Made by a program: the position numbers and the translations under genes. Below are positions 3,175 through 64,000 of a stretch of DNA of 64,000 nucleotides, one piece after another; position 1 is the stretch's first letter, and every line of letters begins with the position of its first letter. The DNA lies in NCBI RefSeq assembly GCF_000276665.1, contig NW_004955477.1:1052223-1116222 (forward strand), in the 5' to 3' direction. The DNA comes from Chinchilla lanigera (Eukaryota > Chordata > Mammalia > Rodentia > Chinchillidae). Under the pieces are notes generated by a model. It did not search any database. It was not told the origin of the DNA and saw only the letters and a program-made list of their open reading frames with translations.

Positions 3175-3347
3175 TTAATAGTTCTGCAACCTCTGGTATT
3201 TGTAGTCTGTTCGCTGATTTACAAAATGCCTCACTGTGATTGCAACCACAATCACTACATTCAGAGCGAGGACCATGAATGAAAACAGATGCAGACCATT
3301 GAAAGACTGCCTCCAAGTTCCTTCTGCAGGTGCCTGGTGCAGAACTC
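3175..3347 (-). CDS. CUZD1: CUZD1 coding exon 9 (membrane anchor and tail)
   Basis: Begins after a T-rich tract ending TTTACAG and encodes 57 residues. A stretch of about 20 hydrophobic residues (from [14 protein letters not shown]) forms the transmembrane helix, followed by a basic cytoplasmic tail ending YQRLQNY and a TAA/TAG-type stop at 3175. Confidence 0.93.
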
Positions 3348-12300: not shown

Positions 12301-15300
12301 GCACCTAGCACAGGCCTGCCACATAGAAAGTGCCTGATAAATGTTTAATGTTATTTTTCACCTACCTTTGTTCTTCCCACCTTTCTGTTGCTTCTCTTTA
12401 TACATCAAAAATAATGTACATTTTTTGATAGCTCTAGCATTCCAGGCAGTTTAAAAGTCCTTTTCCTTTTTGATTCCTTCAGTGTCAGCCGAGTCCAACT
12501 TCAGTGGTAAAGTTCACAAAGTGACCAGCAGTATCAGTGTCATTTGGCAATCTGTATCCTGTGCAAAGTCTCACATATCCATGCCCATCTGAATAAGTTA
12601 GTGGAGACCCTGGGTGGGGCCCACTAACTTGTGCCTAGAGGTGGGGTAAGATACTGAGCACTGAATACTGAGTGCTGAATAAGAGCCCTGAGATAGGGTA
12701 AGAGTAAGAACAATGATCCCATTCCCACTTATTACTTTGGGACTCTGGGACCATTAAGTGCATTCTCTAGGCATTTTTATCTATTTAATGGGACTAAAAT
12801 GCAAGCCATAAAATGGTTGATAAGATTACCTGGGACAGACCTCATGAAGCACTGAGTTACAGGGGCACTGTGTTCTCAGGTTGGCCTCACACTGGCTTGC
12901 CTGGGTACTTATAAAAATCACTTATGATCTAAGTAAAAAATATTGATGCCTGGGTTCTGGGTCCTCTCTCAAGACTGTTATGTGATTAAGAATCAGAAGT
13001 TTATTGTTTCAAGACACAGAATTTGGAACTAGACTAGCTGGTTGCTAAGCCTAATCATTCTACTCACTGTTTGTGGTGACCTCAACATTTTGAAACTTCC
13101 TGTGTCTGTAAGCCTAGTAATGACCTCAGGGGAGCTCTGTGAGACAGGGGAGGCATGCAGTTAACAGCAGTGACTACTACTCACTGGTAGTCATTGTCAT
13201 CATCATCATCAATGACTGTCAAGCATTATTGTCATCAACACCATTATCATTATCATGGGAATGACAACCATCCCTACCACCTCTAGCAGCAGTTGAATTC
13301 TGTAGCTAGAGGTCAAGCTCCCTCCTTGAAAAGCTGAAGATTCTACTTACTGGATGTGGGAAAATATGATTCTGATGTTTTTGTTTTCTGGTCTTTCTAT
13401 TGTCCAAGTGCAGTTCTCACTGGCCTTGAGTTGCAGGATCATGGCGTTGTGTGTGTCTGCCAAATTGGCACCTCCCAGGCTGGCAGTGCAGTCTGATCTG
13501 CCTGGGAAAGAACACAGTGGTTGCTGAAGGAAGTCCAAGCACCTGTCCACTCCTGCAGCTATCTCGCACATGTCATACCCTACAAGCATGCAGCTAATCA
13601 CAAATGCTATTTTTGTTCATTCCATACCAAGTCACGAGCAATAGAGTTTTCCTTCTTGGAACCCTTGAGATTTTCTACATATGGTCCGTCAAAAAAGACT
13701 ATATTAGGGTCTGAAGAAAGATGGGAGCTTTATGTCTAGGATATGTAACAAATCCTTACAATTCCATAATTAAAAGACAAAGAACACAATTACAAATGGA
13801 CAAAGAAAAGGATAGACTTTTCCAAAAGAGAGCTATTGATCAAAAACTCGTATATAGCAGCAAACTTTCTCATTTTCTTTTTCATTTCTCATGAGTGGAA
13901 ATATCCTCATACCAAATCTTTTATTTTTTTCTAACTTTAAAAATGATCTTTATTAGAAAAAAAATCAAAAAATAAAAGTAATTAAAGAAGAAAGGTATAA
14001 TTGCACAATCCCACCTATGGAAAACCAATCATCATAGAAGCATTGCTGTGACTATATCCAGATTGTTCCCTTTCCTCTGCTTTCCTTCTCCTTACAGATT
14101 TCTTAAATCTTATCATTTTAACCATAAAAACTATCATAAGTTTCAAAGAGTTTTTTATTTTAATGTAGATACTAGGCATCTTTATAATTTATGAGTGTCC
14201 TTTTTTAAAATGTGTAGAAAAGTATTTCTTTGTTATGAATTTACCATAGCAAAATCAGTGATGGAAATTTATATTGTTTTTATGATTATGTAAATACCCA
14301 TACTTGTGCATTAACTTTGTGTACTTTATGATTATTTTCCAAAGATAAATTCTTAGTAATGAATTACCCAATAAAACTCCATGTACTTTGTATGTTTCAA
14401 TGTACACTGTCATATAAGCCTGAAAGAAATTAGTACTAAACCAAAATCATACCAACAGCATTAAAATTTTATCTGTATTGGGGCCATAAAGATAGGGGTC
14501 TATAGACAGGGAAATAATAAAATAAGTGTTCATTAAATGTTCCTGATAATCTTGACTAGAGAGTTAAAACTTTACTAGAGGGAATCATTAAAAGGATAAG
14601 GATAAGAAAGGCAAATAAAAGCAGATAAAGAAAGGCACCACATGGCATTGGGACTTACATCAAAGAACCAGAGGGAACGCTGATAGGCAGAGCACAGGGG
14701 AAGCCAGGTGCATGAAACCAGGATAGCACCCCCTCCCCACCTTCAATAAAGTACAGAGGAGAAGGGGGAAGGGCTCACCTGAGGAAAATCGTATTTAGTA
14801 TAGAAATATATATGTCACTCTGGAGTCACCATATTACTGCACTAGATACACACATATCCCCTTAATTAAATCACTAACTCTAAGCTGACTTTCTATAAGG
14901 CTCCTCCTAACTAACCTATAAATGCCAGAGACAAGGCCCTGACAAGGACAGGGAGATGTCAAACAAAGCCCACCCAAAGAAATGGCACCCAGGGTAGGGT
15001 CTTGTGTCCTGAGATCCATCCAAGACAGCCCGGAGAGTCAATCAGGTTGTGGCAAGTTCCAGGAAGGAAGGGTCTCCCAAAACCTGATAAAAGGAACTGG
15101 GGACTAAGGCCCACAGGTATCCATTTTCCCAGAGCCCCTTGCTGCCCTCTCTGGGGCAGCTTTCTATCTTTTTCCTCCTTACAAATAAAGTGTTTTCCTT
15201 TTTAAAAACTCCATCTCTTTAACACATTACTGGTGCTGAGTTCACAGTCCCAGTTAGATGCTCATCCCGGTGAAGCAGCAGTGCCCACTCCAGACTCAAC

Positions 15301-15483
15301 AGGGCCAACAGCACTGAAATCTTTTAAAATTTTGGAAGAGGCCTGATGAAATGAGGTCTTTTCTAGCTTAGGGGAGAAATCCAGTTGAATGTTCTTACCT
15401 TCAACTTCAGACACATTCGGATCTGCCAGACATGAGGTTATTAAAAGGGCCAAGAAAATGAGCCTTCTTAGGACCTCCATCAT
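3175..15483 (-). CDS. CUZD1: CUB and zona pellucida-like domain protein 1 (nine coding exons)
   Basis: Coding exons on the minus strand, in transcript order, are 15399-15483, 13351-13501, 11354-11568, 9830-9980, 9162-9379, 8537-8709, 6957-7348, 5884-6152 and 3175-3347. Phases fit at every GT/AG junction and the sum is 1827 bases: 608 codons plus stop from the first ATG, or 607 from the second. That agrees with the human length I remember (607). The order is signal peptide, CUB1 (exons 2-3), CUB2 (exons 4-5), ZP domain (exons 6-8), basic RRKR processing site, then a C-terminal membrane helix and short tail (exon 9). CUZD1 is a type I membrane protein associated with pancreatic zymogen granules and uterine/ovarian epithelium. 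No frameshift or stop is seen. The gene lies upstream of a FAM24 gene on the same strand, as in human. Confidence 0.95.
4193..4340 (+). repeat. B1 SINE
   Basis: Diverged B1 in CUZD1 intron 8. It has the internal duplicated GAGGCCAGCCTGGGTTACA module and a CTGTCTCAAAAAA end. Confidence 0.85.
4351..4568 (+). repeat. B1-ID dimeric SINE
   Basis: A B1 unit (GCTGGGCATGG...CCCTGCTTCAAA) is followed after a short A-rich linker by a tRNA-derived ID unit (GGGCTGGGAATGTAGCTCAG...) and an A-rich tail. Such 7SL-tRNA dimers are known in non-murid rodents. Confidence 0.8.
4640..5570 (+). mobile_element. L1 3' end fragment
   Basis: Shows the familiar end of L1 ORF2 and the 3'UTR: the 'ATCACTGATCATTTG' segment, the 'GGTGGGAGTGTAGACTGGTAC' segment and 'ATAGCCAAATCCTGGAAACAG'. 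A purine-rich tract (5.28-5.46 kb) follows. The frame is broken. Plus orientation in CUZD1 intron 8. Confidence 0.8.
5884..6152 (-). CDS. CUZD1: CUZD1 coding exon 8 (ZP-C end and processing site)
   Basis: Encodes the Cys-rich end of the ZP domain (CSRDETCK..., [17 protein letters not shown]) and then RRKRDTSS, a furin-type consensus, with a second basic RLKRDRS downstream. Donor is G|GTAAG. ZP proteins are normally released or assembled after cleavage at such a site. Confidence 0.93.
6957..7348 (-). CDS. CUZD1: CUZD1 coding exon 7 (ZP domain core)
   Basis: The largest exon, 392 bases, fully open. It runs from [10 protein letters not shown] to [10 protein letters not shown]. Acceptor is TTCTGCAG and donor GG|GTATGT. 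Several N-x-S/T glycosylation motifs are present (NSTVEI, NTSMAL, NQTLF). Confidence 0.93.
7621..7761 (+). repeat. B1 SINE
   Basis: B1 in CUZD1 intron 6, slightly shortened in the middle, with a pure A tail. Flanked by an imperfect duplication of AAAATCAATTTG. Confidence 0.9.
8537..8709 (-). CDS. CUZD1: CUZD1 coding exon 6 (start of ZP domain)
   Basis: Read from the minus strand after acceptor CCTGACAG. It encodes [20 protein letters not shown]... to [10 protein letters not shown] and ends at donor AAG|GTAAAG. The phase matches exons 5 and 7. Confidence 0.9.
9162..9379 (-). CDS. CUZD1: CUZD1 coding exon 5 (second half of CUB2)
   Basis: Encodes [18 protein letters not shown], then [20 protein letters not shown] and [16 protein letters not shown]. 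The 'CxFDFxxVYDG', 'CG' and 'GFxAxY' pattern is the second half of a CUB domain. Donor is A|GTAAGT. Confidence 0.94.
9500..9602 (+). repeat. young ID SINE
   Basis: Ala-tRNA-like ID element (GGGGCTGGGGATTTAGCTCAG, GGTCGTGAGTTCGATTCC B box) with an A tail. It has a perfect 14-bp TSD, AAGATGACAAGTCT, at 9486-9499 and 9603-9616. Lies in CUZD1 intron 4. Confidence 0.95.
9830..9980 (-). CDS. CUZD1: CUZD1 coding exon 4 (first half of CUB2)
   Basis: Starts after TTTCTTTCAG. It encodes [20 protein letters not shown] followed by a segment with [14 protein letters not shown], the typical CUB opening: CGG, SPNYP, then C-x-W-x-I. Confidence 0.94.
9981..11353 (-). other. CUZD1: CUZD1 intron 3
   Basis: Between donor 11353 and acceptor 9981. 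I saw no repeat boundary or coding block in it. Confidence 0.7.
11354..11568 (-). CDS. CUZD1: CUZD1 coding exon 3 (second half of CUB1)
   Basis: Encodes [17 protein letters not shown], then [18 protein letters not shown] and [11 protein letters not shown]. Acceptor is TGTCCACAG and donor ATCT|GTAAGT. The CUB1 Cys pair and the acidic DG motif are kept. Confidence 0.94.
11569..13350 (-). other. CUZD1: CUZD1 intron 2
   Basis: Mostly unique sequence with a short TCATCA-rich patch at about 13.19-13.25 kb. The exon-proximal end (about 13.25-13.35 kb) was copied to about 22.34-22.47 kb. Confidence 0.7.
13351..13501 (-). CDS. CUZD1: CUZD1 coding exon 2 (first half of CUB1)
   Basis: Encodes [20 protein letters not shown], then [20 protein letters not shown] and SHIQ. 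Acceptor is TTTCCCAG and donor CA|GTAAGT. A diverged partial copy of this exon lies at about 22.47-22.59 kb. Confidence 0.95.
14780..15250 (+). mobile_element. ERV LTR in CUZD1 intron 1 (approximate ends)
   Basis: A GC-rich block with a GATAAAAGG TATA-like motif near 15.09 kb, then a C/T-rich stretch and AATAAAG near 15.19 kb followed by a T-rich run. This is the U3-R-U5 order of a gammaretrovirus-like (ERV1) LTR in plus orientation, antisense to CUZD1. I could not fix TG/CA ends or a TSD. Confidence 0.6.
15399..15483 (-). CDS. CUZD1: CUZD1 coding exon 1 (signal peptide)
   Basis: Encodes [20 protein letters not shown] and then DPNVSEVE. A hydrophobic signal peptide precedes a likely cleavage site after the Ala. 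Two start codons are adjacent; the second gives the 607-residue length. Donor is AAG|GTAAGA. Confidence 0.93.
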
Positions 15484-15518
15484 TGTAAGGGGCTAGGCAA
15501 GCCTCAGGGACAGTAGGC

Positions 15519-18296: not shown

Positions 18297-19196
18297 TCAC
18301 AGTCCCTCATGTACGTTACAGAAGCAAGGTGGAAGTGTATCATAATCTGCATACATTTTGCACTCATCACAGAATTGAAGAGTGGGACAAGAATTGATGG
18401 CAGTGGTTCCAGCCAGCATGAGTTTGTCCTTGTCTAAGTTAACATCAACACCGTGTTCTTTTGCAGCCCTTAAGAAAAGACATACACAAAGCACAGGATT
18501 AGAAGTTTTCTTTTCAGGGCAATCGTCAGGGCTCTCTGGGGAGTTCAGGGGTGCGACCAGTCATACAAGTGACACCAGCCCTGGATTAAAGCTCTCTGCC
18601 CCATGCCTATTTCCTCTCTCAGCCCTTCCTCTCCTACAACTCCTGTACATGTAAAGAAAAGTGACTTGCATGACACAGCTAGTTGCTGCCGACCTTGGAG
18701 ATACAGGAATGAGGAGGAAGAGGCTGAAGCTGGCTGTGTCCTGGGCTCCAGGGTCCACAACCTAACTCCCTAGAATGGGGACATCATTGCTGCTGACAGC
18801 CAGTCTGTCCCATCTTTTGGATTCTCTCCCCCAAAAGCACCACTTGCTGTCACATATTCCTTCATTCTACTTACTAGCTTACAACCACAACCCAGAAAGA
18901 AAAAAACACCAAGATTCTGTAGCCACCCAATCTTGCCTTTATAAACCGGCCTGTGGTTCTTGACCTCAGCTAGGGCATGACACCAGTAGCAAGGAATAGA
19001 CCCCTGCTCAAGCAAACAACCCCAGGTGTCCCATTTGAGGGGTATTTTTCACTCTTATCCCCATGACTTACTTCAGTGCCTTGGATAGTTTGACATAAAG
19101 ACAGATGACAACACCTGTCAGTACAAACATGGCCACCAGGATTCCACTGCAAATGATCATTAGCATCATTGTCCGGAGATCGAAAGCCACAGTCAT
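18297..19196 (-). CDS. FAM24: FAM24 family protein, copy 1 (two coding exons)
   Basis: Coding exons are 19072-19196 and 18297-18468, joined in phase at ..CTGAA|GTAAGT and ..CTTAAG|GG, giving 98 residues. The N-terminus (MTVAFDLRTMMLMIICSGIL) leads into a hydrophobic segment of about 22 residues, a signal anchor or signal peptide, then CLYVKLSKALKAAKE. The C-terminus has a conserved Cys-rich end, CDECKMYADYDTLPPCFC, then NVHEGL. FAM24A/B are small proteins of unknown function next to CUZD1 in human; the exact A/B orthology is not settled here. The first coding exon starts right after a splice acceptor (TTTGTCCAG|GTATG), so an upstream non-coding exon is expected. Frames are intact. Confidence 0.88.
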
Positions 19197-38460: not shown

Positions 38461-38652
38461 CACTGATGACAAATCTTTTAGAGACCCAGTACCCAAATTG
38501 CAACCCAAAACCCACTTACTTATCCCAAAGTGCTGACACTGCAATTAAGCCTGAATACCAAGGTTTTAGTTTAGAAAAAAAGAACTCTTACATTAACATC
38601 TTTTGTCTCAAAAGGAAAACACAGAAACAGCTTTCAATGATACAAACAGCTT

Positions 38653-38658
38653 TTTATT
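38653..38658 (-). terminator. poly(A) signal of the hAT transposase gene
   Basis: TTTATT on plus (AATAAA on minus) about 40 bases beyond the transposase stop codon. Confidence 0.6.
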
Positions 38659-38696
38659 GAAAGGTAAAAGCTTGGATTTGGCATGTTTTTCCACAA

Positions 38697-40628
38697 TTAA
38701 TGTGATCTTTGCTGTTGTATGCATGCTGATAATTTGTCAAACCTGGGCTCATACTTCGTTAGTTTGAGAGCAACACATGCAGCACTCACATCATCTGTCT
38801 GTTTTCTTGTATCAGATTTGATGTAATTCAAAGCTGAAAACAGCTGCTCACAAGCATAAGATGATCCAAACAAAGTAAGAAAAGCAATCCCAAGTGCTTT
38901 CATTGACTTAAAATTATTTGGCAGAGAATTCCACACTTTAAGGATTTCATTTTCAGGACTACCAACTGTTCTATCCTTTGTCATCCCTTCACACGCTAAT
39001 GTCTCTATCTTCTCAAGTGTTGCACGCAGGTCAAAGAATTTATTTTTCCAGATAGAACTTTCTTGAAATTCCAGTAGCTCCATTTCCAGATTTCCAAAAT
39101 CTAACCAGTGTAAGCAGGAAAGATCAAGTTCTTCAAATTTGGCTTTATCTGGAGAAGTAAGAAAACACAGAGTTGTCTCCATCTTATGGAACTGTAAAAA
39201 TCTGTTACTAATATTTGCCTTTGCAGCTGCTACAAGGCTAGAAAATTCCTTATAGATTTCCTGATGGCTCGTAGGATGGTCTGAAAATGTAGTATTGTCT
39301 AAATGTATTTTTAGATTTGGAAAGTATTTCAGCTGCCCACTTTCAAGGTCTCTCTCAAAAACCTGCAGTTTTTTCTCAAATGTTTTGATATCATAAAACA
39401 TCCTTTCTGCTGTTTTCCCTATACTTTGTAGTTTTTTGTTCAGTACATTGAAATGTAGTGTAAAATCTGTAAAAAACATTAAGTTATTAAGCCAGGCCAT
39501 ATCAGTGAGCTGTGGATAGTCCTGCCCTTTTTCATTCATAAACAGCCTAATTTCATCCAAACAGGCTACAAATCTCTCCAGGACTCGTCCTCTGCTCAGC
39601 CATTGGACTTTATTGTACATAAGTAAAGCATTATACTGTGTCTGAACCTCATCAAGCAGTGCTTGAAACTGTCGAAAATTACGAGCACGAGCCATGATGT
39701 AATTCACCATTTTTGTGACATCTCTGAGGATATCATCTAATTTTTTGCTGCCTTCCCTGGCACAAAGAGCTTCTTGATGTATAATACAATGAAACTGAAT
39801 GACTGGATGTTTTGTTTCTTTAACAAAGAACTGTACGAAACCAGATGTTGCCCCTATCATGTGAGGTGCCCCATCACTAGTAACTGAAACCACTTTTTCT
39901 GGTCTTATGTCTTGTGACAAAAAAGTCTCCATCACAGCATTGTAGATATCTATCCCTTCTGTTCTTCCAGGCAAAGACACCAGTTTCACCAGCTCTTCTC
40001 TCATGATGTCACCAACTGCATAACGCAAAATTACCGCTAGCTTTGCATGGTTATTTATATCTGTGCTTTCATACAAGCACATGGAGTAACAGGCTGCCTT
40101 TTGTAAGTCAGTGGTGAGTTGCTGGCTAACATCACCTGCCATGCGCAGGACTCGATCTTTAACAGTGTTTCTGCTAAGTGGCATCTCAGAAATACGTTGC
40201 ATAATTTTATCCTTGTTTGGAAAATCATGAAAAAGGGAATCACTCCCAGATAACATGGCCATTTTGACAAAATCCCCATCAGAGAGGGGCTTACCATGTT
40301 TTACTATACACAGTGAAATTTGAAAGCTGGCAGCTGTCAGATGATTTGACTTAGAAAGATGGTTGCAAAAACTAAGATACTGGGAATGACATTTCCTCAA
40401 TTTTCCTTCTAGAAACTCTTTCCTTTCAGTTTCACCAAGTTCAGCAACACTTTTGTGGTTGGTGTCAAAGTGCCGTCTCACACTTGATGTGCGACACACA
40501 ACACTTTCACTACACAGAATACATAACGCTTTCCCATTGCGTTCAATCACTCCAAATGACTCTGTCCAGGCCTGTTGGAATGATCTTCCACTATCTGGTT
40601 TCAGTTTTGCTTTTTTTGCTGCAGTCAT
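38697..40628 (-). CDS. hAT-superfamily transposase, BED finger + RNase H-like + hATC, 643 aa
   Basis: One uninterrupted frame from ATG 40628 to the stop at 38697. Residues ~25-60 form a BED zinc finger (C36-x2-C39 ... H53-x4-H58). The RNase H-like core follows: first-Asp region at 182-190 reads MCLYESTD, where this family normally has LDESTD, so the first catalytic Asp is Tyr186 (codon 40071-40073, TAT; one base from GAT). The second Asp is D252 in TSDGAPHM. A CxxH is at C281/H284, WLSRG at 343-347, and the third acidic residue E594 sits in CEQLFSALNYIKS, the hATC dimerisation region. It is related to the transposase-derived part of GTF2IRD2 and to the Charlie/SPIN-type hATs. It would bind DNA and excise/insert hAT elements, but the Asp change predicts loss of catalysis. 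Whether the host has co-opted it is unknown. A good splice acceptor (T-rich, ...TTTTTGTAG) lies at 40650-40651, just before the ATG. Confidence 0.9.
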   Translation of the reverse strand: MTAAKKAKLKPDSGRSFQQAWTESFGVIERNGKALCILCSESVVCRTSSVRRHFDTNHKSVAELGETERKEFLEGKLRKCHSQYLSFCNHLSKSNHLTAASFQISLCIVKHGKPLSDGDFVKMAMLSGSDSLFHDFPNKDKIMQRISEMPLSRNTVKDRVLRMAGDVSQQLTTDLQKAACYSMCLYESTDINNHAKLAVILRYAVGDIMREELVKLVSLPGRTEGIDIYNAVMETFLSQDIRPEKVVSVTSDGAPHMIGATSGFVQFFVKETKHPVIQFHCIIHQEALCAREGSKKLDDILRDVTKMVNYIMARARNFRQFQALLDEVQTQYNALLMYNKVQWLSRGRVLERFVACLDEIRLFMNEKGQDYPQLTDMAWLNNLMFFTDFTLHFNVLNKKLQSIGKTAERMFYDIKTFEKKLQVFERDLESGQLKYFPNLKIHLDNTTFSDHPTSHQEIYKEFSSLVAAAKANISNRFLQFHKMETTLCFLTSPDKAKFEELDLSCLHWLDFGNLEMELLEFQESSIWKNKFFDLRATLEKIETLACEGMTKDRTVGSPENEILKVWNSLPNNFKSMKALGIAFLTLFGSSYACEQLFSALNYIKSDTRKQTDDVSAACVALKLTKYEPRFDKLSACIQQQRSH

Positions 40629-40649
40629 TTCAGGTTCAAGACTTGGAGT

Positions 40650-40651
40650 CT
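40650..40651 (-). promoter_or_regulatory. candidate splice acceptor in the transposase 5' leader
   Basis: On the minus strand a long T-rich run ends TATTTTTGTAG|ACTCC 21 bases before the start codon. It suggests a spliced leader, either the transposon's own or acquired. Confidence 0.4.
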
Positions 40652-41063
40652 ACAAAAATACAAAATTAAAAAAAAAGAAATGAAGCACCCAATACAAATC
40701 TATCCCTATACCAAAAATTGCTATCACTGTTAGTTAACACCAAAGAAATTGGATATTCCCTGAATCAATCATCTGCGGCAGTGATTCTCAGCTTGGAGCT
40801 CTTCTTGAATTTACTGACCACAGGCACAAGAGGGCAATGTTTCACTGACCACCAGCTTTTGGCCTGCTCTGAAAAAGGCATCTGAGTGCATTTCCTACCT
40901 TGCTGAAGATTCTGCTAAAATCATAGTCGAAGCAAATATATATATCCTTGTTCTTGTTTTCATAAATTCTTAACAAATAAATACGATACTGCAGATTCAA
41001 ATATGTCAGGAGGACAGCACAATATTAAAAGAATTTCAGTCTCTTAATTAGATGACCTATTTG

Positions 41064-41260
41064 GTTTTTTGTTTTGCTTTGTCTTTTTGAGACAGGGTCT
41101 CACTTTTGAGACAGGTCTCACCCTGTCTTTTTGAGACAGGGTGCAATTCAGGCTGGTCTTCAGTTTACTTTGTAGCCCAGGCTGGTCTTGAACTCTCAAT
41201 GATCCTCCTGCCTTAGCCTCCTCAGTGCTGGGATTACAGGCATGCATCACCACGCCCAGC
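41064..41260 (-). repeat. B1 SINE with local duplication, inside hAT
   Basis: The TTTTTGAGACAGGGT head is repeated about 50 bases apart before the normal B1 body, ending ...CATGCATCACCACGCCCAGC. Confidence 0.88.
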
Positions 41261-41494
41261 AGAAGATCTCTTTGTTAAATCTTAGATATTAAATTTCAAT
41301 GCTAAAACCTTTTTTTTTTTTTTTTTTTTAGACAGGGTGTCATTATGTAGTGCAGGCTGGCCTTGACCTTGCTTATGTACCCTAAGTTGGCCTCAAACTC
41401 ACCACAATCCTCCTCCCTCAGCCTCCTGAGTGGTGGGAATATAGGCATGTACCACCACATCTGACTCAAACCTAAAATCCCGTTAATAAAAACA
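41240..41494. repeat. direct duplication, left copy
   Basis: About 255 bases (from GCATGCATCACCAC through a B1 to TTAATAAAAACA) recur at 42643-42893 with few differences. The shared unit includes non-SINE sequence (GCAGAAGATCTCTTTG...), so it is one duplicated segment and not two independent B1s. Confidence 0.92.
41309..41464 (-). repeat. B1 SINE inside hAT
   Basis: T tract, AGACAGGGTGTCATTATGTAG..., ...CATGTACCACCACATCTGAC. Confidence 0.9.
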
Positions 41495-41532
41495 AATGCA
41501 TTAAAATTCATAGCCAGTCCAAGCAAGAGTAT

Positions 41533-41556
41533 CTATATATATATATATATATATAC
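41533..41556. repeat. (TA)n microsatellite
   Basis: Pure AT dinucleotide run. Confidence 0.9.
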
Positions 41557-41776
41557 CTCCTTGGCAGCATGCTGACCAGCCATGCAAAAGCTCAAATGAG
41601 TCATGGCTGAGTCACTGCTTGTGACATTATTACCTGATATGCTCCTTCCTGAGCATGCACATAGACCCTATGTGCAGTTATCTGATGCTTGATTGCTGGT
41701 ACCACTTGGCTTGGTGCTGACAGAGAGGGCTTTGCATGCCCATAGAAGCATACATGCCCGAGGTTTACCACCATTG

Positions 41777-42305
41777 CCCTGGTGGCTTTTCTCTTGAGAG
41801 AAGGGCTTTGAATAGTGTATCAAAACCATTACTTTTTCACTGGGCATATTTTAAAATGGTTACCTTTCCTACCCATGCACAAACCAACAGGGAATTTCCT
41901 CAATTCTCCCCAATCATTTCTATGAGATTCTGGTAGTTTCTGGGGGGAAATCTGTAGGGGTTCTCTCAAGGGAATCTATACTTGACCTCCAGAAACTCAT
42001 CAGTGATCATTTTAAGTGTTCCCACTAGTAAATGCCTCAGGAAGAAGTTGTTCCTGGTAAGGTGCTCTCAACTTTGATTTTCAAGATTTGCCTCTCCAGT
42101 TTTACAGTTGCTATTTGCCCTGTGACCTCAATCACCTGTTAAAATTTTTAAATGATACTGATGTTCACTTTGCTCAGCTTTCCTTTTATGAAGACAGCTT
42201 AATAAATTCTAAGCTGTCAAAACTGAAACTAGAAGTGTCGAGTTGTATAAAAACTAGGAATATAAGCTCATACAAGTTGAAACTATTTAGAATTTTCATT
42301 GCATT
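41777..42305. other. unique sequence right of the hAT element
   Basis: No gene recognised; the short open frames do not match known families. Confidence 0.5.
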
Positions 42306-42642: not shown

Positions 42643-42893
42643 GCATGCATCACCACACCCAGCAGAAGATCTCTTTGTTAAATCTTAGATATCAAATTTC
42701 AATGCTAAAATCTTTTTTTTTTTTTTAGACAGGGTGTCATTATGCAGTGCAGGCTGGCCTTGAACTTGCTTATGTAGCCTAGGTTGACCTCAAACTCACC
42801 ACAATCCTCCTCCCTCAGCCTCCTGAGTGGTGGGAATGTAGGCATGTACCACCACATCTGACTCAAACCTAAAATCCTGTGTTAATAAAAACA
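42643..42893. repeat. direct duplication, right copy (contains a reversed B1)
   Basis: Second copy of 41240-41494. It begins inside the end of the first B1, so its left breakpoint is within that SINE. Confidence 0.92.
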
Positions 42894-43009
42894 TCAATTA
42901 TATCCTTTATCCTTAAATTTTAAAAACCCCATAATATAAATACCATAATATAATACCGTAATATAAATCATAACAAGAGTAATTTAGTACATTAAAATGA
43001 GGTAGGGTT

Positions 43010-44640: not shown

Positions 44641-44859
44641 AAATAAAATAAAATAAAAGAAGGTCCTGGAAAAGAAATTCTAGTTTTGTAAAGAGTACTA
44701 TAAACACAAGCGTGACACCCCAAATTTAAAAAACACTGACCTCCCAATATCCTTCGAACCTACTCTGCAGTTTTTGAAAATGTGAGGTTTAAAGAAAGGT
44801 GTGAAAAGATGCAATCTACCTTCTGACTACACACAGTAACTGTAAAATTCATTCTCAAT

Positions 44860-45880
44860 CTCAAATTTCTGCGCGCACACCCTCTGGATCTCCAGGACCT
44901 TCAGACTTCGGTCTTTGAGAGTGCCCCAGGCTAGCTACCCCGGCTCCTGCGACCAGAAGCAAGGAGGTCCGACCCGACCTCGGCTGCTACTGAGCTGAAA
45001 TGCGAAGGCTGCCTTGGCCCAACACCGCCCAGAAATCCCCTTCAAACCCCAACCTCCCACCCTCCATCTCAACTACCCTCTACTGTCAGAATAGGAGGAA
45101 CAAAAAATAACCAGAGTCGACCGCCCGTCCCCTCCTCTCACGTCTACAAAGGCCCGGAAGCGCCTCATGCACCGCGGAGGAGGGGGCTGCCGTCCACTCT
45201 TGAGATCACCAGGTCAGGGGTGGTCCTGCAGATGTCAGAGCGAGCACACTACACCTACCCGACTACAGACTCTCTTCATTGGACCCACCCTGTTCAAGAG
45301 CCCAGCAACGGCCCTCCAAGAACCAGCTCTTGCTCCACACTCAACGTCCCAAACTGACCCCCTACAGGCGCTCAGCCCACTGCGCCTGCGCGTCTTGGTG
45401 GCGCAGTCAGTGCGCATGCTCCACACTCTATGCCCCAGCCCTCGGGTCCTGGACTCCTTTCTTGAAGTCACGTTAGCTGGTGTGCGCATGCGTATCTCTG
45501 CTTGTCTTGTGTGTCTCCCCAAGGAAACCTAAATCCTGCAAGGGAGGTTCCGGTCTTGGCGTGGGCTGGAGGTGGCAGAATGGAGACCCAGACTGAGGAC
45601 CCGAGACTGACCCGCTGCCCGCCGCCAGCCTTTTTGTGGGATGCCGCCAACAAGCCGCGAACCCAGAGCCTCCTAACCCGAACTGGGCTCGGCGCCCAGA
45701 ATTTCGACCGGGAGGAGCTTCTGGCGCCGCCTGCTCCGGAGTGCACCGTGCGGGAGGGGACTGGGGTGCTGAGCTCGGTGACAACTGCGCTCCTGGGGAG
45801 CCGTGATGGGGGACGGGCCGCTAGGGGACAGGGTCCCCGGAACGAAGCGGGGCAGAGAGATGGAGATTTTTTTTTTTCAG
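44860..45880. promoter_or_regulatory. CpG island
   Basis: About 1 kb of GC-rich sequence with frequent CpG (e.g. CCGGAAGCGCC, GCGCCTGCGCGTC, GCGCATGCG), in contrast to the AT-rich surroundings. CCGGAAG is an ETS-type core and the GCGCATGCG repeats look like NRF1 sites. Typical of a housekeeping promoter. Confidence 0.85.
45580..45740 (+). CDS. C10orf88: first coding exon of C10orf88 (PAAT), partial
   Basis: ATG at 45580 opens METQTEDPRLTRCPPP, then SLLTRTGLGAQNFDREELLA and PPAP: the N-terminus of C10orf88/PAAT, an ATPase-like partner of mitochondrial ABC transporters. The exon should stop at CCGGA|GTGCAC; a GT is there but the donor is weak. Reading on would give a nonsense tail. About 140 bases further, L1 sequence begins, and no other C10orf88 exon was found in the following 18 kb. 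It may be a real exon 1 with a very distant exon 2, or an orphan duplicate. Orientation relative to FAM24 differs from what I remember for human. Confidence 0.75.
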
Positions 45881-45884
45881 TTCT

Positions 45885-46245
45885 TTACAAATTCTAGACA
45901 CTACTCTCCTGTCAGAGGAGTAGCTAACCAAAAGTTTTCCTATTTAGTAGGTCGTCTCTTTTTATTCTATTGGTTGTTTCTTTTGCTGTGCAGATGCTTT
46001 TTAATTTGATACAATCCTCTTTGTTGATTCTTGATACTATTTCTTGTGCAATTGGAGTTCTGTGTAGAAAGTCCTTTCCTGTGCCTATGCCTTCAAGAGT
46101 TTTATCTATTTTTTTTCTTCTAGCAGATTGTTTCTGTTGTAATATTTATGTCTTTGATCCATTTTTATTTCATTTTGGTGCATGGTGATATATAGGGGTC
46201 TAGGTTCATTCTTCTGCATGTATATAACCAGTTATTACAAATATT
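45885..46245 (-). mobile_element. L1 ORF2 3' fragment
   Basis: Reversed L1 text (CTCTCCTGTCAGAGGAGTAG..., TTTGATCCATTTTTATTTCA...), parallel to 32.5-33.4 kb. Abuts the CpG island. Confidence 0.75.
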
Positions 46246-53135: not shown

Positions 53136-54305
53136 ATGTTTGACCTCGATACAAAGACTATAATCTACATTGGTGGCAGCTTACTGATCGTTGCAGTTAT
53201 ACTGATTGCTGTTGCCACTAGTCTTTTCTTCAAAGTCACCAAAGTGCTGAAGTGAGTCGTGGGGACAAGAGTGAACAATGCTTCCTCAAATGGGAGACCT
53301 GGTGCTCTGCTTGAGCAGGGTCATTCCTTATTACTGGGGCTACACTGTGGTTGAGGTCAAGAACCACAGGCGGGTTTGAAAAGGCGAAGACAGGTGGGTA
53401 CAGAATCTTGGGGTTTGTTTCCTTCTGGCTCGAGGCTCTGACCTGGGAAGTAGAATATTTTCTACTTGAGGCTGTGTGTGTCAGCACCACTTTGGTGGCA
53501 CTTGACCTCACTGGGTTTACCATTAGATATTTATTAGTCCCTTGGCAGAATTTCGCCTAGTCCCAGGTGCTAGAGACAGGACAATCCCAGGGGATGCTAT
53601 GGGAATGAGCTTGGGACGGGCCACACTGACCTCCTCTTGTCCAACTTAGGAGCTCCCAAGCCTCTTCCCACATTCATACCTCGTGGCCTTAGGGACAGTG
53701 AGGTGGGCCTATAGGACAAAGGCCCTATAGAAGACAGCTTACAAGGAAAAGTAGGTCAGGCAAGTTTGGAGAGAGGATCCTTAAGTATGGGAGAAACTAG
53801 CTCTCAGCCTCCATGGTGTCCCCATTGTAAGGAATTACATAGTAGGGCCCCTTCCCCCTTATTCCTACAGCAACCATGTGGGTGATCCCTACTTGCAATT
53901 CATCCCCCGCCCCTTTTGCAACCTGAGTTTACATGTACAGCAGTTGTAGGAGAGAAAGTGATGAGAGAGGAACTCAGCATAGGAGCAGAAGACCTTTAAT
54001 CCAGGACTGGTGTCACGTGTGTGGTTGGCTGCAGCCCTGAACTTCCCAGAGAGCCCTGACAATTGTGAAAAAAAAAAAAAAAAAAAGCCACTGGAAAGAA
54101 AACTTGCAAGCTCATGCCTTGTGTATGTCTTTTCTTAAGAGCAGCAAAAGTACTTCATTGTGAAGCCATCAACACCAAGGACAAGGTCATCCTGGCTGGA
54201 GCCTCCACGACTGAGTATCGTCCCACTGTTTCGCCCTGTGATGAATGTAAAATGTATGCAGATCCCTTGCCACCTTGCTTTTGTGAGATAAATGAGGGAT
54301 TCTAA
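53136..54305 (+). CDS. FAM24: FAM24 family protein, copy 2 (two coding exons)
   Basis: Coding exons 53136-53251 and 54140-54305 join in phase (CTGAA|GTGAGT ... TTCTTAAG|A) and encode 93 residues. The protein starts MFDLDTKTIIYIGGSLLIVA with a single hydrophobic segment, then FFKVTKVLKAAKV, and ends CDECKMYADPLPPCFCEINE plus GF. The last residues differ from copy 1 (EGL) and two residues are missing in 'ADYDTLPP'. The intron also resembles that of copy 1 in reverse (e.g. GTTGTAGGAGAG and CAGAGAGCCCTGAC in it). Function is unknown; family context is CUZD1/FAM24A/FAM24B. Start follows a splice acceptor. Confidence 0.88.
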
Positions 54306-59479: not shown

Positions 59480-62400
59480 GGCCCCCAGAGCAAGATAAAC
59501 ATAGAATGTGGCTCCTATAATTTTGCAAAAGCTTCTAAGGCACTTTGAAACCCCAGTTCCATGTTCCCTCTCTTACCATCAGTTCTCTCCCTTTCTCAGG
59601 AGAGAAATGGGGAAAAAGCCTCTCAACAAGCCTTCTGCTGAGACATCCGAATTGAAGCCCACAGGGACAGCAAAGAGAGAGACTTCAGTGAAAAAGGAGG
59701 TGGCAGATGGCGCCATCTCCCTGAGCCTCAATTCACTGTGTGGGAAGGGTGGCTCCAACCTACAGATGCATGGTGACTACTGGTGACCTTAGAAAAATCT
59801 CCATGGAGAAATGCACCAGTGGACACAGCAAACTATAGCGACTGATGAGTTATTAGGGTTCAGACGTCCCCCAGGAGAGGGCAACTGCCTGGTAGCTGTC
59901 TTGAAGAGGGGCCAGCTGAGCTCAGAACTCAGAACAGCTGCAAGCCCCATCTAGTGGCTCCCAGTGACTGGGTCAGGGAGCTGAGTTCAAGATGGCAGGA
60001 AGTCAGGGAGCCAAGTTCAAGCCAGCAAGACTGCTCCAGGCTGAACAAATCTGGTCCAGCCTCACATCCAGAAACCAGCTTGAACTTCTGGGGAAATAAA
60101 GGTGCAAGTCCACTGAGATTACCCACCACCCCGCTGGCAAACTGCTACTGGCTTGCTGGATTAAATCAAAAAACAGATCTGGTCTCTGTCTCCCCACATT
60201 GTCTACCAGTGACAGCAGAGACAAACCTTGAAGTGGACATTTTTTCCCCTCTCTCGCTTTTCCTTTTTTCTTCATTGTTTGATCATGTTCTTATATGACT
60301 CTGAATGTGGTTTGTAGTTTTTTTGTGCTTCTTGCTCTACTCTGCTCCTGTTTTTATTTCTTCCTTCTTTCTTTCCCTCCTGTCTTCTTCACCAGTTTCT
60401 CATACTTTGTGTGATCTTCCTTTGTCCTCTAGCCTTGCTTTTAATCTCATCCTGTTGTTCTATTTCTCTATTTTTTTCCCCTAACCCCTTTTAAATTTTC
60501 TCCCCTGAGGGTGAAAGTACCATATTGAGGGCTTATTTACTGCATACAATTTTATGATTTTTCTTAGATTTTGTTAAATAACCAGAAGTTTAGTTCATAC
60601 TGCTAAAGTTCATACTATTAAAGATTATTAGTTACCTCCGTTTGTCATTTTCTATACTGTGTTTGATGCTATTGTTATTGCTGATCATACCACTTTAGCC
60701 AAAGTGACATAATTGTTCTAACCAGTTGCTCTTCTTTGTATACCAAGATTGAGAATGTCTAAGGGTCATAAAAATACTATGGGCCAATACCAAAGAATCA
60801 GGAGCTGGGCAAAGTAGGCAGCAACTTCTCATCTCAATAAATTGAAAAGGTAGAATATTGCAACAGACTCAAAACCCAAAAGCCAGATACACCTGGAAGA
60901 AACCTCAGAGTAGTAGTCATTTTCTAAGGGTTCTATATACTGCAATAAAGCTACTCACCACAGACAATTTACAAGCATCAACCAAAGAGTTAAACTAAAA
61001 AAAAAAAAAAAACAGAAAATGAGAAAACACTTAAACAAGATTCAACCCCAGACATCAGGCTCACCAAAGGCAAATCTAGGAGGCAATGAGGTAGAACAAT
61101 CAGAAAACAACAAATGGACTTAGTAGACCTTTACAGAATGTTTCACCCCACAATGTCACAATACACATTCTTCTCAGCTGCACATAGGATGTTCTCCAAA
61201 ATACAAGACATGCTAGCTCATATAACATATTTAAGTAAGTGCAAAGGAATTGGAATTATCCCATTCATATTACTGGACCATAGTGCAAGGAAATTGGAAA
61301 TCAGTGGCAAAAAAAACTCACAAGAACTTCATAAACACGTGGGAAATTAAATAGCACCCTCCAGAACAACCAATGGGTCACAGATGAAATTAAAGAAGAA
61401 ATTAGACAGTTTCTACAATTAAACAATAATGCCAACACAACATACCAGAACTTATGTGACACAATCAAAGCAGTCCTAAGAGGGAAATTTATAGCAGTGA
61501 ATACCCACATCAGGAAGACAGAGTGAGCCTGAATAAACAAGCTTCTAGAAAAAGAAAAGAGGGTCAAGTCCAAAGCTCATACAAGGGAGGAAATTACAAA
61601 GATCAGAGCAGAAATTACTTCAGTGGAGACTAAGAAAATAATACAAAGAATCAATGAATCAAAGAGTTGTTTCTTTCAAAGAGTAAAGAAAGTTGACAAA
61701 GCTTTAGTGAACCTTATCAAAAAAAGAAGACTCAAATCCATACAATTAGGAATTAAATGAGTAAAATCACAACAGAAACAGCAGAAACCTAGAAGATCAT
61801 CTATATCTGCTTTGAGAACTCATATTCTAATAAGATGGAAAATGCAGAAGAAATGGAGATTCCTAGATACATATGAATTACCAAAGCTAAATCAAGAAAA
61901 TATAGAAAAATCCTAAATAAACCAATACCAATCAATGAAATTGAAGATGTAATTAAAAACCTACCAAACCCAGGCACAGATGGATTCACTGCTAAATTCT
62001 ATAAGAAATTTAGAAATGATCTAATACCACTACTTCTCAAACTCTTTAATAAAATTGAAAGGGAAGCAATACTCCCCAATTCATTCCTGGAAGCAAGCAT
62101 TACCAAGGGAAGCAAGTATTACCAAGTTCATAGCAAAACTAGAGAAGGACTCAATTTAAAAAGAGAACTACAGGCCAATCTCCCTAGTGAATATAGATGC
62201 AAAAATCCTTAATAAAATACTGGCAAATACAATACAGCAAATCATCAAGAAGAATATACACCATGACCAAGCAGTATTCATTCCAGGCATACAGGGATAG
62301 TTTAATATATGCAAATCAATACATATAATGCATCACATTAACAGAGCTAAGAACAAAAGCTATATGATCATCTCAATAGATGCAGAAAATGCTTTTGACA

Positions 62401-64000
62401 AGTCCAACACTCATTTATGATTTTAAAAACCTTGCAGAAAATTGGCATATATGTCTTTATCTCACTGACAAAAGCCATCCATGACAAACCAACAACCAAC
62501 ATCACAATAAATGGACAAAAACTGAAAGCTTTCTCTCTAAAATCAGGACCAAGACAAGGACGTCCACTGTCACCACTCTTATTTCATATAGTTTTGGAAA
62601 CTTTAGCCAGGACAATTAGACAACAGAAAGAAATAAAAGGAGTAATGATAGGAATGGAAGAAGTTAAATTATCATTTTTTTGCAGATGATGTGATACTCT
62701 ACACAGAAGGCCCCAAAAACTCCACCAAAAGAGTTCTAGGTTTCATAACCAAACTGAGTAGTATAGCTGGATACAGAGTCAGCAATGTACATGAATAACA
62801 AACTCACAGAGAGAAATTAAGGAAACAACAACTTCACAATAGCATCCAAAAAAAAAAACAAAGTACCTAGGAATCAGTCTAACCAAAAAAGTAAAAGACT
62901 TCTATATTAAAATTACAGTACTCTGAAAAAAGATATCAGAAAATGGAAAGATATCCCTTGCTCTTAGATAGAATGAACCAATATGGTGAAAATGGACATA
63001 CTTCCAAAATTGTTATACAGATTTAATGCAATCCTGATCAAAATTCCAACAGCATATCTCACAGAAGTAGAGAAAACAATCCTAAAATTCATTTGGAACC
63101 AGAAGGGACCTAGAATAGGCAATTCTTGGCAACAAATGCAAGGCAGGGGGCATCACAATCCTAGACTTGAAATTATACTACAAAGCTACCATGATAAGAA
63201 CAGCATGGTGCTGCCAAACAAACAGACCTCAGGATCAAAGGAACAGACTAGAAGATGCAGAAGCAACTCTAAATGCACTCAACCACCTGATATTTGACAA
63301 AGATGCCAAACACACCCACTGGAAAAAGGATAGCCTTTTTAATAAGTGGTTCTGGAAAAACTGACCTTTCACATGCCAAAGACAAAAACTAGAACCATAT
63401 CTATCACCATGCACTAAGCTAAAATTAAAATAAATCTAAGATCTAAATAATAAAACAAAAACATTAAATCTGCTGGAAGGTAGAAAGAACAGGTAGAACT
63501 CTGGAAGACACAGGTGTAGGCATAGATTTCATGAACAAAACCCCAACTGCACAGGAACTATCACAAAGAATCAATAACTGGGATCTCATCTTATTAAAAA
63601 GCTTTTGCAAAGCAAAAGAAATTACCAGTAGAGTGAAAAGACAACCTACAGAGCGGGAAACAATTCATGCCAGCTGTTCTTCAGATGAAGGACCAATATC
63701 TAGAACTACTATCTAGAACTGAAAAAAATCAGACCCTCCAAATTCAAAGATCCAACCCCAAAATGGGCATCTGAGATAAATAGGTACTTATCAGAAGTAC
63801 AGATGGAAAGTAAATATATGAAAACAGCATTCAACATTACTGATCATTTGAGAAATACAAATTAAAATAACACTGAGATTTCATCTCACTCCAAAAAGAA
63901 TGGCTATTATCAAGAAAACAACTAATAACAAATGCTAGTGGGGCTGTGGGAAAAAGGAACCCTTCTCCACTGTTGGTGGGAGTGCAGACTGGTGCAACCA
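59480..64000 (+). mobile_element. L1 retrotransposon, disrupted, running off the window
   Basis: The endonuclease C-terminus is readable at 61114-61350 (MDLVDLYRMFHPTMSQYTFF, then LLDHSARKLEI). The RT core is at 62417-62689 ([13 protein letters not shown], broken before the active-site DD, which follows in another frame: [11 protein letters not shown]). The ORF2 C-terminal region is at 62983-63297 ([20 protein letters not shown]). Stops and shifts occur throughout, so it is inactive. The part left of about 60.7 kb (including AAGATGGCAG near 59.99 kb) is probably its 5' region, but is less sure. Confidence 0.8.

What the first reader, a model, noticed from the sequence alone, without database searches (positions are those of the whole stretch)
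38697..40628. Fully open hAT transposase (643 aa) with an apparent loss of the first catalytic Asp
Seen: one frame without any stop, BED finger Cys/His all present, the second Asp (D252) and the hATC Glu (E594) present, but MCLYESTD at 182-190 where hAT relatives have LDESTD, so the first Asp is Tyr186 (codon TAT, 40071-40073). Known: hAT catalysis needs all three acids, and most mammalian DNA transposons outside bats are long dead. Inference: an intact frame with a broken active site, inside an element with decayed ends and old SINE inserts, is what a domesticated, DNA-binding-only transposase gene would look like, as with GTF2IRD2 or ZBED proteins. A young insertion with one mutation is the alternative.
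Basis: partly seen in the sequence, partly recalled or inferred. Interest (0 to 1): 0.87.

Follow-up and report, generated by a model that had tools for sequence, protein, structure and literature searches.

The report
Chinchilla gene from a captured transposase
In the chinchilla genome, where nearly every examined copy of one jumping gene is broken, this copy still has an unbroken protein-coding frame, lacks a residue that related enzymes use to cut DNA, and is modelled as spliced to a host exon; it was likely kept by natural selection as a DNA-binding protein.

Summary
The 643-aa frame is real (minus strand). The window is Chinchilla lanigera, near CUZD1. The frame is exon 2 of an NCBI-modelled gene. 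Exon 1 lies 3.5 kb outside the transposon, in the window's only CpG island, and joins in frame through a splice acceptor that the transposon carries (AG kept in 13 of 15 dead copies).

A capped genome search found 58 places with this hAT. Two are full length and open: this one and L002, a group A copy with a SCAN exon upstream. A third open chinchilla protein (P0025, group B) is in the protein database but was not found in the genome as served. Against 18 broken copies, this branch has 38 nonsynonymous, 29 synonymous and no nonsense changes (broken: 2091, 740, 138; p=0.003). Codon positions 1+2 evolved 0.41 times as fast as the element's non-coding ends (broken copies 0.65-1.53). Constraint leans to residues 20-180 (5:10; 181-300 has 10:1), clearly only together with L002. 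Asp186 is Tyr.

Best reading: a domesticated transposase that binds DNA without cutting, a new member of a known kind. Untested: transcripts, orthologous insertions, DNA targets. The lost Asp alone proves nothing: that codon is altered in 7 of 16 broken copies.

The parts
38697..40628 (-). hAT transposase-derived open frame, 643 aa
   Evidence: 100% to P0001
40629..40649 (-). exon 2 upstream of the transposase ATG (TPSLEPE), in frame with exon 1
   Evidence: TPSLE also in SCAN-fused relatives and a snake model
40650..40651 (-). splice acceptor AG after a T-rich tract, carried by the transposon
   Evidence: AG kept in 13 of 15 broken copies that cover it
45259..45417 (-). exon 1 as modelled by NCBI (53 aa), host sequence outside the transposon
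   Evidence: 100% over 53 aa; joins in frame, 703 aa, single stop at the end
45257..45258 (-). splice donor GT (GTCGG|GTAGGT)
44701..46100 (.). CpG island, the only one in the window; likely promoter
   Evidence: 18 or more CpG per 500 bases only here; window mean 3.5
45381..45392 (-). NRF1-like site, exact match to the recalled consensus
   Evidence: 0.06 matches expected by chance over the whole window
45483..45494 (.). second NRF1-like site, one mismatch
45537..45865 (.). part of the island with an inverted paralogue at G000:C76:1140978-1141318, 84%
38461..41780 (-). extent of the hAT element, with two B1-like SINEs inside its 5' part; ends decayed
   Evidence: 3' limit +2167 in 11 of 19 other loci; 5' limit -1148 to -1152 in three; SINE reading by eye
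38653..38658 (-). AATAAA, 38 bases after the stop
40392..40571 (-). zinc-finger region, residues 20-79; no amino-acid change counted on this branch
   Evidence: 0 N: 2 S; P of 0 = 0.026
40089..40571 (-). residues 20-180, the more constrained part
   Evidence: 5 N: 10 S against 512:166 in broken copies, p=0.0008
40071..40073 (-). codon 186, TAT (Tyr) in place of the first catalytic Asp
39873..39875 (-). codon 252, Asp kept
38847..38849 (-). codon 594, Glu kept

Best explanation
This is likely a domesticated chinchilla gene: a hAT transposase frame that stayed open while nearly every examined relative in the genome is broken, modelled as spliced to a host CpG-island exon, missing one catalytic Asp, and predicted to bind DNA without cutting it. 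Shown: the frame, the element-borne splice acceptor, exon 1 outside the element, the broken relatives, the pattern of substitutions and the Tyr at 186. Inferred: a hAT invaded an ancestor of hystricognath rodents, one copy landed 3.5 kb downstream of a CpG island that has a second copy nearby, and a host transcript was spliced into the transposase. The protein then kept its zinc finger and N-terminal part for DNA binding while the catalytic region drifted. Its likely targets, untested, are the ends of the dead relatives or other host sites.
For: Two full-length stop-free matches among 108 rows (58 places) in the own genome; each of the other 56 places has at least one row with stops, and four further stop-free rows are fragments of 72-88 codons. 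Branch-specific changes of this copy: 38 N, 29 S, 0 nonsense; 18 broken copies: 2091 N, 740 S, 138 nonsense; Fisher p=0.003, without CpG sites p=0.002. Codon positions 1+2: 0.0336 against 0.0815 in the element's own non-coding ends, p=4.7e-6; ratio 0.41, L002 0.38, 18 broken copies 0.65-1.53, pooled 0.97. If its 38 N changes had been neutral, 6.2 nonsense or frameshifting changes would be expected (P of none 0.002). Residues 20-180 are more constrained than 181-643 in this copy and L002 together (11:24 against 72:43, p=0.0017); broken copies show no difference (p=0.36). In this copy 181-300 has 10:1. Group B, which also lost Asp186, shows the same contrast between proteins (p=0.004); seven transposon-like proteins do not (p=0.45). 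Exon 1 in the only CpG island, donor and acceptor in frame, AATAAA.
Against: No transcript was seen: exon 1 is an NCBI prediction. No orthologue at the same site appeared among the 120 listed proteins, though the open L002 was not there either, so absence says little. Changes made while the lineage was still a transposon cannot be separated from later ones. Its non-coding ends (8.2%) are less diverged than the broken copies' average (11.5%), so it may be somewhat younger. Two broken copies also have low ratios on their own (L013 0.65, p=0.0025; L019 0.68, p=0.02), and one a high one (L008 1.53, p=0.01). For this copy alone the regional contrast is p=0.074 and residues 181-643 do not differ clearly from broken copies (p=0.11); private residues avoid conserved columns only at p=0.054. 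16 sites could not be polarised. Codon 186 is altered in 7 of 16 broken copies. Group A, still with Asp in four species, shows no regional contrast between proteins (p=0.44).
Confidence: 0.8

Rival explanations
1. Late insertion: the lineage stayed an active transposon for most of its history, inserted recently, and has one chance mutation in the active site; selection seen here is selection on the transposon.
For: Its non-coding ends are less diverged than the average of the broken copies (8.2% against 11.5%).
Against: 8.2% divergence of those ends; no young copy among the 18 broken ones examined (each 8% or more from the shared state at every codon position); the stretch 181-300 has 10 N: 1 S, not what an active transposase lineage should show; no copy with an open frame and the catalytic triad was met in this genome (window Tyr, L002 Gly; P0025 Tyr; only 69 of 677 candidates scored).
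Confidence: 0.08
2. A former host gene, now released: it was selected for a long time, then lost its role (perhaps with Asp186), and is open only because too little time has passed.
For: Overall constraint is moderate; residues 181-643 of this copy alone do not differ significantly from broken copies (32:19, p=0.11).
Against: No stop and no frameshift; no amino-acid change counted in the zinc finger; Tyr or Cys at 186 in the three group B proteins (Heterocephalus, Chinchilla, Fukomys) shows that open frames persist without Asp186.
Confidence: 0.07
3. Chance survivor or annotation artefact: a dead transposon that happens to be open, named as a gene by a pipeline known to label hATs as GTF2IRD2.
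For: PMC10641963 shows that NCBI names many non-mammalian hAT elements GTF2IRD2-like; the NCBI name of this protein is of that kind.
Against: The name is indeed misleading, but the selection tests do not depend on it: codon-position bias and N:S differ from 18 broken copies of the same family in the same genome.
Confidence: 0.05

Closest known systems
Group A: hystricognath genes annotated FAM200A/FAM200B-like or GTF2IRD2A (P0002 Erethizon, P0003 Heterocephalus, P0004 Cavia, all with SCAN; P0006 Octodon, no SCAN in its model; L002 Chinchilla)
   Same: Same invading hAT (rodent clade 95/88, window protein next to A 95/86), same element-borne acceptor and a host exon in front
   Different: SCAN exon in front (found 2.6 kb upstream of L002), none found in the window; Asp186 kept in four species, Gly in Chinchilla
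Group B proteins (P0018 Heterocephalus, P0025 Chinchilla, P0032 Fukomys)
   Same: Same family, Asp186 replaced (Tyr, Tyr, Cys), zinc ligands kept
   Different: Share a 14-residue deletion and an altered C-terminus; separate branch 100/99
GTF2IRD2 with its Charlie8-like C-terminus (PMC10641963, abstract and first of three parts read)
   Same: hAT transposase of a related kind captured by a host gene
   Different: No GTF2I repeat listed for this protein; the paper says GTF2IRD2 keeps DDE, while here the first D is Tyr
ZBED genes (PMC3606216, passages)
   Same: Domesticated hAT with a DNA-binding zinc finger
   Different: The paper reports the DDE triad conserved across ZBED genes; the finger here scores as Spin-doc type
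Host-transposase fusions (Cosby et al. 2021; not held; seen only through passages of the review PMC10799329)
   Same: Transposase joined to host exons; capture by splicing is recalled
   Different: Here the captured exon adds a short peptide in which I recognised no domain
GTF2IRD2-like proteins of frogs and snakes (P0007-P0010, P0012-P0014)
   Same: 80-85% protein identity over nearly the whole length
   Different: Asp186 present; taken here as transposons. Some other snake and frog models are fused to SCAN or KRAB (P0016, P0017, P0092)

Membership tests
hAT transposase (protein) | Catalytic D-D-E | tested here: not met
   Y-D-E at 186, 252, 594
hAT transposase (protein) | Homology over the whole transposase | tested here: met
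   288 proteins at E<=0.001, frog and snake relatives 80-85% over nearly full length; Hermes matched by the profile
hAT transposase (protein) | hATC dimerisation domain PF05699 | tested here: inconclusive
   Not reported at E<=0.001 for this protein, found in 44 of the 62 proteins scanned; the region aligns to Hermes in the profile
Autonomous hAT transposon | Terminal inverted repeats and 8-bp target duplication | tested here: inconclusive
   Ends shared with other copies at about 38461 and 41780; decayed CACTG/CAATG-like ends seen by eye, no convincing duplication
Domesticated transposase gene | Open frame where relatives of the family are broken | tested here: met
   2 of 58 places full length and open; 69 of 677 candidates were scored
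Domesticated transposase gene | Purifying selection | tested here: met
Domesticated transposase gene | Orthologous insertion kept in other species | not testable with these tools
   I had no genome of another rodent; no candidate among the 120 proteins listed
Domesticated transposase gene | Transcript | not testable with these tools
   No RNA data held; NCBI model only
Host-transposase fusion | Host exon spliced in frame to the transposase | tested here: inconclusive
   Donor, acceptor and frame present, element-borne acceptor; splicing itself not observed
GTF2IRD2 | GTF2I repeats in front of the hAT part | tested here: not met
   P0001 bears only PF27073, PF18658, PF27046
SCAN-hAT (FAM200A/B-like) | SCAN exon | tested here: not met
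   tblastn with the N-terminal parts of P0002, P0003, P0004 finds no SCAN exon in the window; beyond the window's end not tested

The most novel reading that the evidence does not exclude
One invading hAT that carried its own splice acceptor gave hystricognath rodents three separate host genes (SCAN-fused A, group B, and this promoter-captured one), while the other copies died. Survivors shed catalysis by parallel loss of the same Asp and became DNA-binding regulators, perhaps of their own dead relatives: capture by splicing would decide which transposon copies live on as genes.
Probability: 0.35. Interest if true: 0.75.

Novelty: new member of a known kind. Interest (0 to 1): 0.62.

Why it matters
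Transposase domestication is usually argued from conservation across species. Here one genome holds the gene, a sister gene and dozens of broken copies of the same element, so selection and its place in the protein can be measured against true neutral controls. The result suggests which part was kept (DNA binding) and which was let go (catalytic core). It also shows an element with a built-in splice acceptor whose two full-length open copies found in this genome both lie behind host exons, which makes the idea of capture by splicing directly testable.

Tried and rejected
Asp186 as a mutational hot spot or a subfamily mark: rejected. 101 of 633 codons vary at least as much among broken copies, and the two broken copies with TAT share no excess of this copy's changes. 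Descent of Tyr186 from a common ancestor with group B: not supported, because with column 186 left out this copy groups with A (95/86); but in the earlier quick tree a grouping with B was not rejected (p 0.895), and I did not repeat that test on the better tree. Terminal repeats at 40779 and 42569: 10 such matches found against 5.4 expected, and comparison with other copies puts the element's 5' end elsewhere. Relatives in viral contigs: none. tRNA and Rfam scans of the window: nothing. Exon 1 as a protein domain: nothing recognised by eye; it may be mostly leader. Conservation-class test on private residues: too weak to use alone. Literature: the listings of searches (at most 20 titles each) showed no paper on a hystricognath or chinchilla hAT gene; the library lacks most subscription journals.

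Full report
What is there. The finding's ORF is confirmed on the minus strand, 38697-40628, 643 aa. It is 100% contained in P0001, a 703-aa NCBI-predicted protein named GTF2IRD2A-like. P0001's first 53 residues match the window exactly at 45417-45259 and its residue 54 resumes at 40649. The join is in frame, with donor GTCGG|GTAGGT and acceptor TTTTTGTAG|ACTCC, and AATAAA lies 38 bases after the stop. Exon 1 sits in the only stretch of the window with CpG-island composition, 44701-46100, next to two NRF1-like sites (the consensus is recalled, and chance was estimated on the whole window, not on an island). Part of the island has an inverted paralogue about 25 kb beyond the window on the same contig (84% over 341 bases, two smaller pieces); exon 1 itself is not in the aligned pieces.

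Where it is. CUZD1 exons on the minus strand, joined by me, match a Chinchilla lanigera protein at 99% over 92% of the query; other species reach at most 87%. The window is G000:C76:1052223-1116222. Exons at 18300-18560 (minus) and 54069-54302 (plus) look like FAM24 genes (recalled).

The family. The first protein search listed 120 of 288 hits. Nine of the 120 are hystricognath proteins (Chinchilla, with the window's own, Erethizon, Heterocephalus, Cavia, Octodon, Fukomys); I saw no other named mammal in the list, though some names are cut off. Frogs and snakes follow at 80-85% identity. In a 39-protein tree without column 186 the rodent proteins form one clade (95/88). Inside it are group A (four proteins, three of them with a SCAN domain; 100/97), group B (three proteins; 100/99) and the window protein, next to A (95/86). 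A and B each hold an African mole-rat and a South American lineage, so the invasion is likely older than that split (inference; species relations recalled).

Copies in the genome. One search of the chinchilla genome gave 108 matching rows, a lower bound, since 69 of 677 candidates were scored. They make 58 places. Two are full length without a stop: the window copy and L002. Four other stop-free rows are fragments of 72-88 codons. L002 is 90% to the guinea-pig SCAN-fused protein. It has a SCAN exon 2.6 kb upstream (81% identity over 65-69 aa), another codon in place of the transposase ATG in its open frame (Val in the translation), and Gly at 186. The Chinchilla group B protein P0025, open in the protein database, was not found in this genome copy, so two open copies is what I found, not a proven total.

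The element. Matches between the window locus and 19 other loci end at +2167 from the ATG in 11 of them and reach -1148 to -1152 in three, broken by SINEs: about 38461 to 41780. Exon 1 is outside. The acceptor AG is present in 13 of 15 broken copies that cover it, so it came with the transposon. TPSLE in front of the transposase also occurs in SCAN-fused group A proteins and in a snake SCAN-KRAB model, P0016.

Selection. I used the 18 broken copies that one search returned as loci (L003-L020, the best-scoring broken ones of 56 places) as controls. In triples with L002, changes specific to the window copy are 0.034, 0.018 and 0.051 per site at codon positions 1, 2 and 3; for the broken copies 0.115, 0.103 and 0.096. 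Polarised by the state shared by at least 60% of broken copies, the window branch has 38 N, 29 S, no nonsense and 16 ambiguous sites; L002 has 47 N, 38 S; the 18 broken copies have 2091 N, 740 S, 138 nonsense. The raw ratios are 0.34, 0.32 and 0.74. The mutation model gives missense to synonymous of 2.5-3.0 without selection, which is what the broken copies show (2.83). Fisher's test of window against broken: p=0.003; L002 against broken: p=0.0003. The clock inside the locus: the non-coding ends of the window element differ from the shared state at 64 of 785 sites (8.2%), positions 1+2 at 42 of 1251 (3.4%), p=4.7e-6. The ratio is 0.41 here, 0.38 in L002, and 0.65-1.53 in the 18 broken copies (pooled 0.97); three of these differ from 1 on their own (L013 and L019 low, L008 high). 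Broken copies average 11.3 frameshifting deletions.

Where the selection acts. N:S by region for the window copy: residues 20-79 0:2; 80-180 5:8; 181-300 10:1; 301-540 16:13; 541-643 6:5. For L002: 3:4, 3:10, 10:8, 24:12, 6:4. Broken copies are even (191:67, 321:99, 384:154, 839:277, 318:119). Residues 20-180 against the rest: p=0.074 for the window copy alone, 0.019 for L002, 0.0017 together, 0.36 for the broken copies. Among proteins, group B shows the same contrast (28 of 161 against 122 of 422 variable columns, residues 20-180 and 181-602, p=0.004), group A does not (p=0.44), and seven transposon-like proteins do not (p=0.45). So this copy and group B, both without Asp186, keep the DNA-binding part and relax elsewhere, which is what a DNA-binding-only protein should show; L002, with Gly186, does too. 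The grouping 20-180 was made after the counts by region were seen, so these p-values are somewhat generous.

Residue 186. Among 16 broken copies that cover it the codon is GAT 9, TAT 2, GCT 2, AAT 1, CAT 1, GAG 1. That is not exceptional. The Asp-to-Tyr change is likely private to this copy and cannot by itself carry the argument. Tyr at this site also occurs in a frog (two proteins), a snake, a lizard, an aphid and two of three group B proteins.

How it most likely works. Shown: frame, missing Asp, kept finger, element-borne acceptor, host CpG-island exon, pattern of selection. Inferred: transcription from the island, splicing into the element, a nuclear DNA-binding protein that cannot cut, acting on the ends of dead relatives or on host sites. 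The most likely alternative use is protein-protein contact through the C-terminal part.

Known context. NCBI names of the GTF2IRD2-like kind often mark transposons in non-mammals (PMC10641963; abstract and first of three parts read; no mention of chinchilla, rodent or SCAN in the main text). ZBED genes are reported to keep the DDE triad (PMC3606216, passages), in contrast to this one. Host-transposase fusion is an established kind (review PMC10799329, passages; the primary paper is not held). I file this as a new member of that kind.

Noticed in passing
residue 186 in P0023, P0030, P0036, P0048, P0113, P0018, P0025: The same Asp-to-Tyr change recurs in frog, snake, lizard, aphid and mole-rat/chinchilla proteins of this family (8 of 117 with the window), with one each of Ala, Cys and His.
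   Followed up: partly
P0016, P0017, P0092, P0075: Snake and frog gene models of the same hAT are fused to SCAN, KRAB or another domain, so capture may have happened several times outside rodents; models not checked.
   Followed up: no
P0052, P0085 (Tachypleus): Horseshoe crab proteins are 72-73% identical to this family over 56-67% of the query, a hint of horizontal transfer between phyla.
   Followed up: no
41240-41503 and 42643-42900: A stretch of about 260 bases is present twice, 91-96% identical, 1.4 kb apart.
   Followed up: no
P0018, P0025, P0032 (group B): Second hystricognath paralogue with a shared 14-residue deletion and altered C-terminus; the chinchilla member was not found in the genome copy served here.
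   Followed up: partly
3200-15500: CUZD1 gene on the minus strand; nine exons recognised by eye, eight of them joined for the search.
   Followed up: partly
18300-18560 and 54069-54302: Two FAM24-like exons in opposite orientation flank the gene (recalled identity).
   Followed up: no
61300-63400: LINE-1-like reverse transcriptase fragments on the plus strand (by eye).
   Followed up: no
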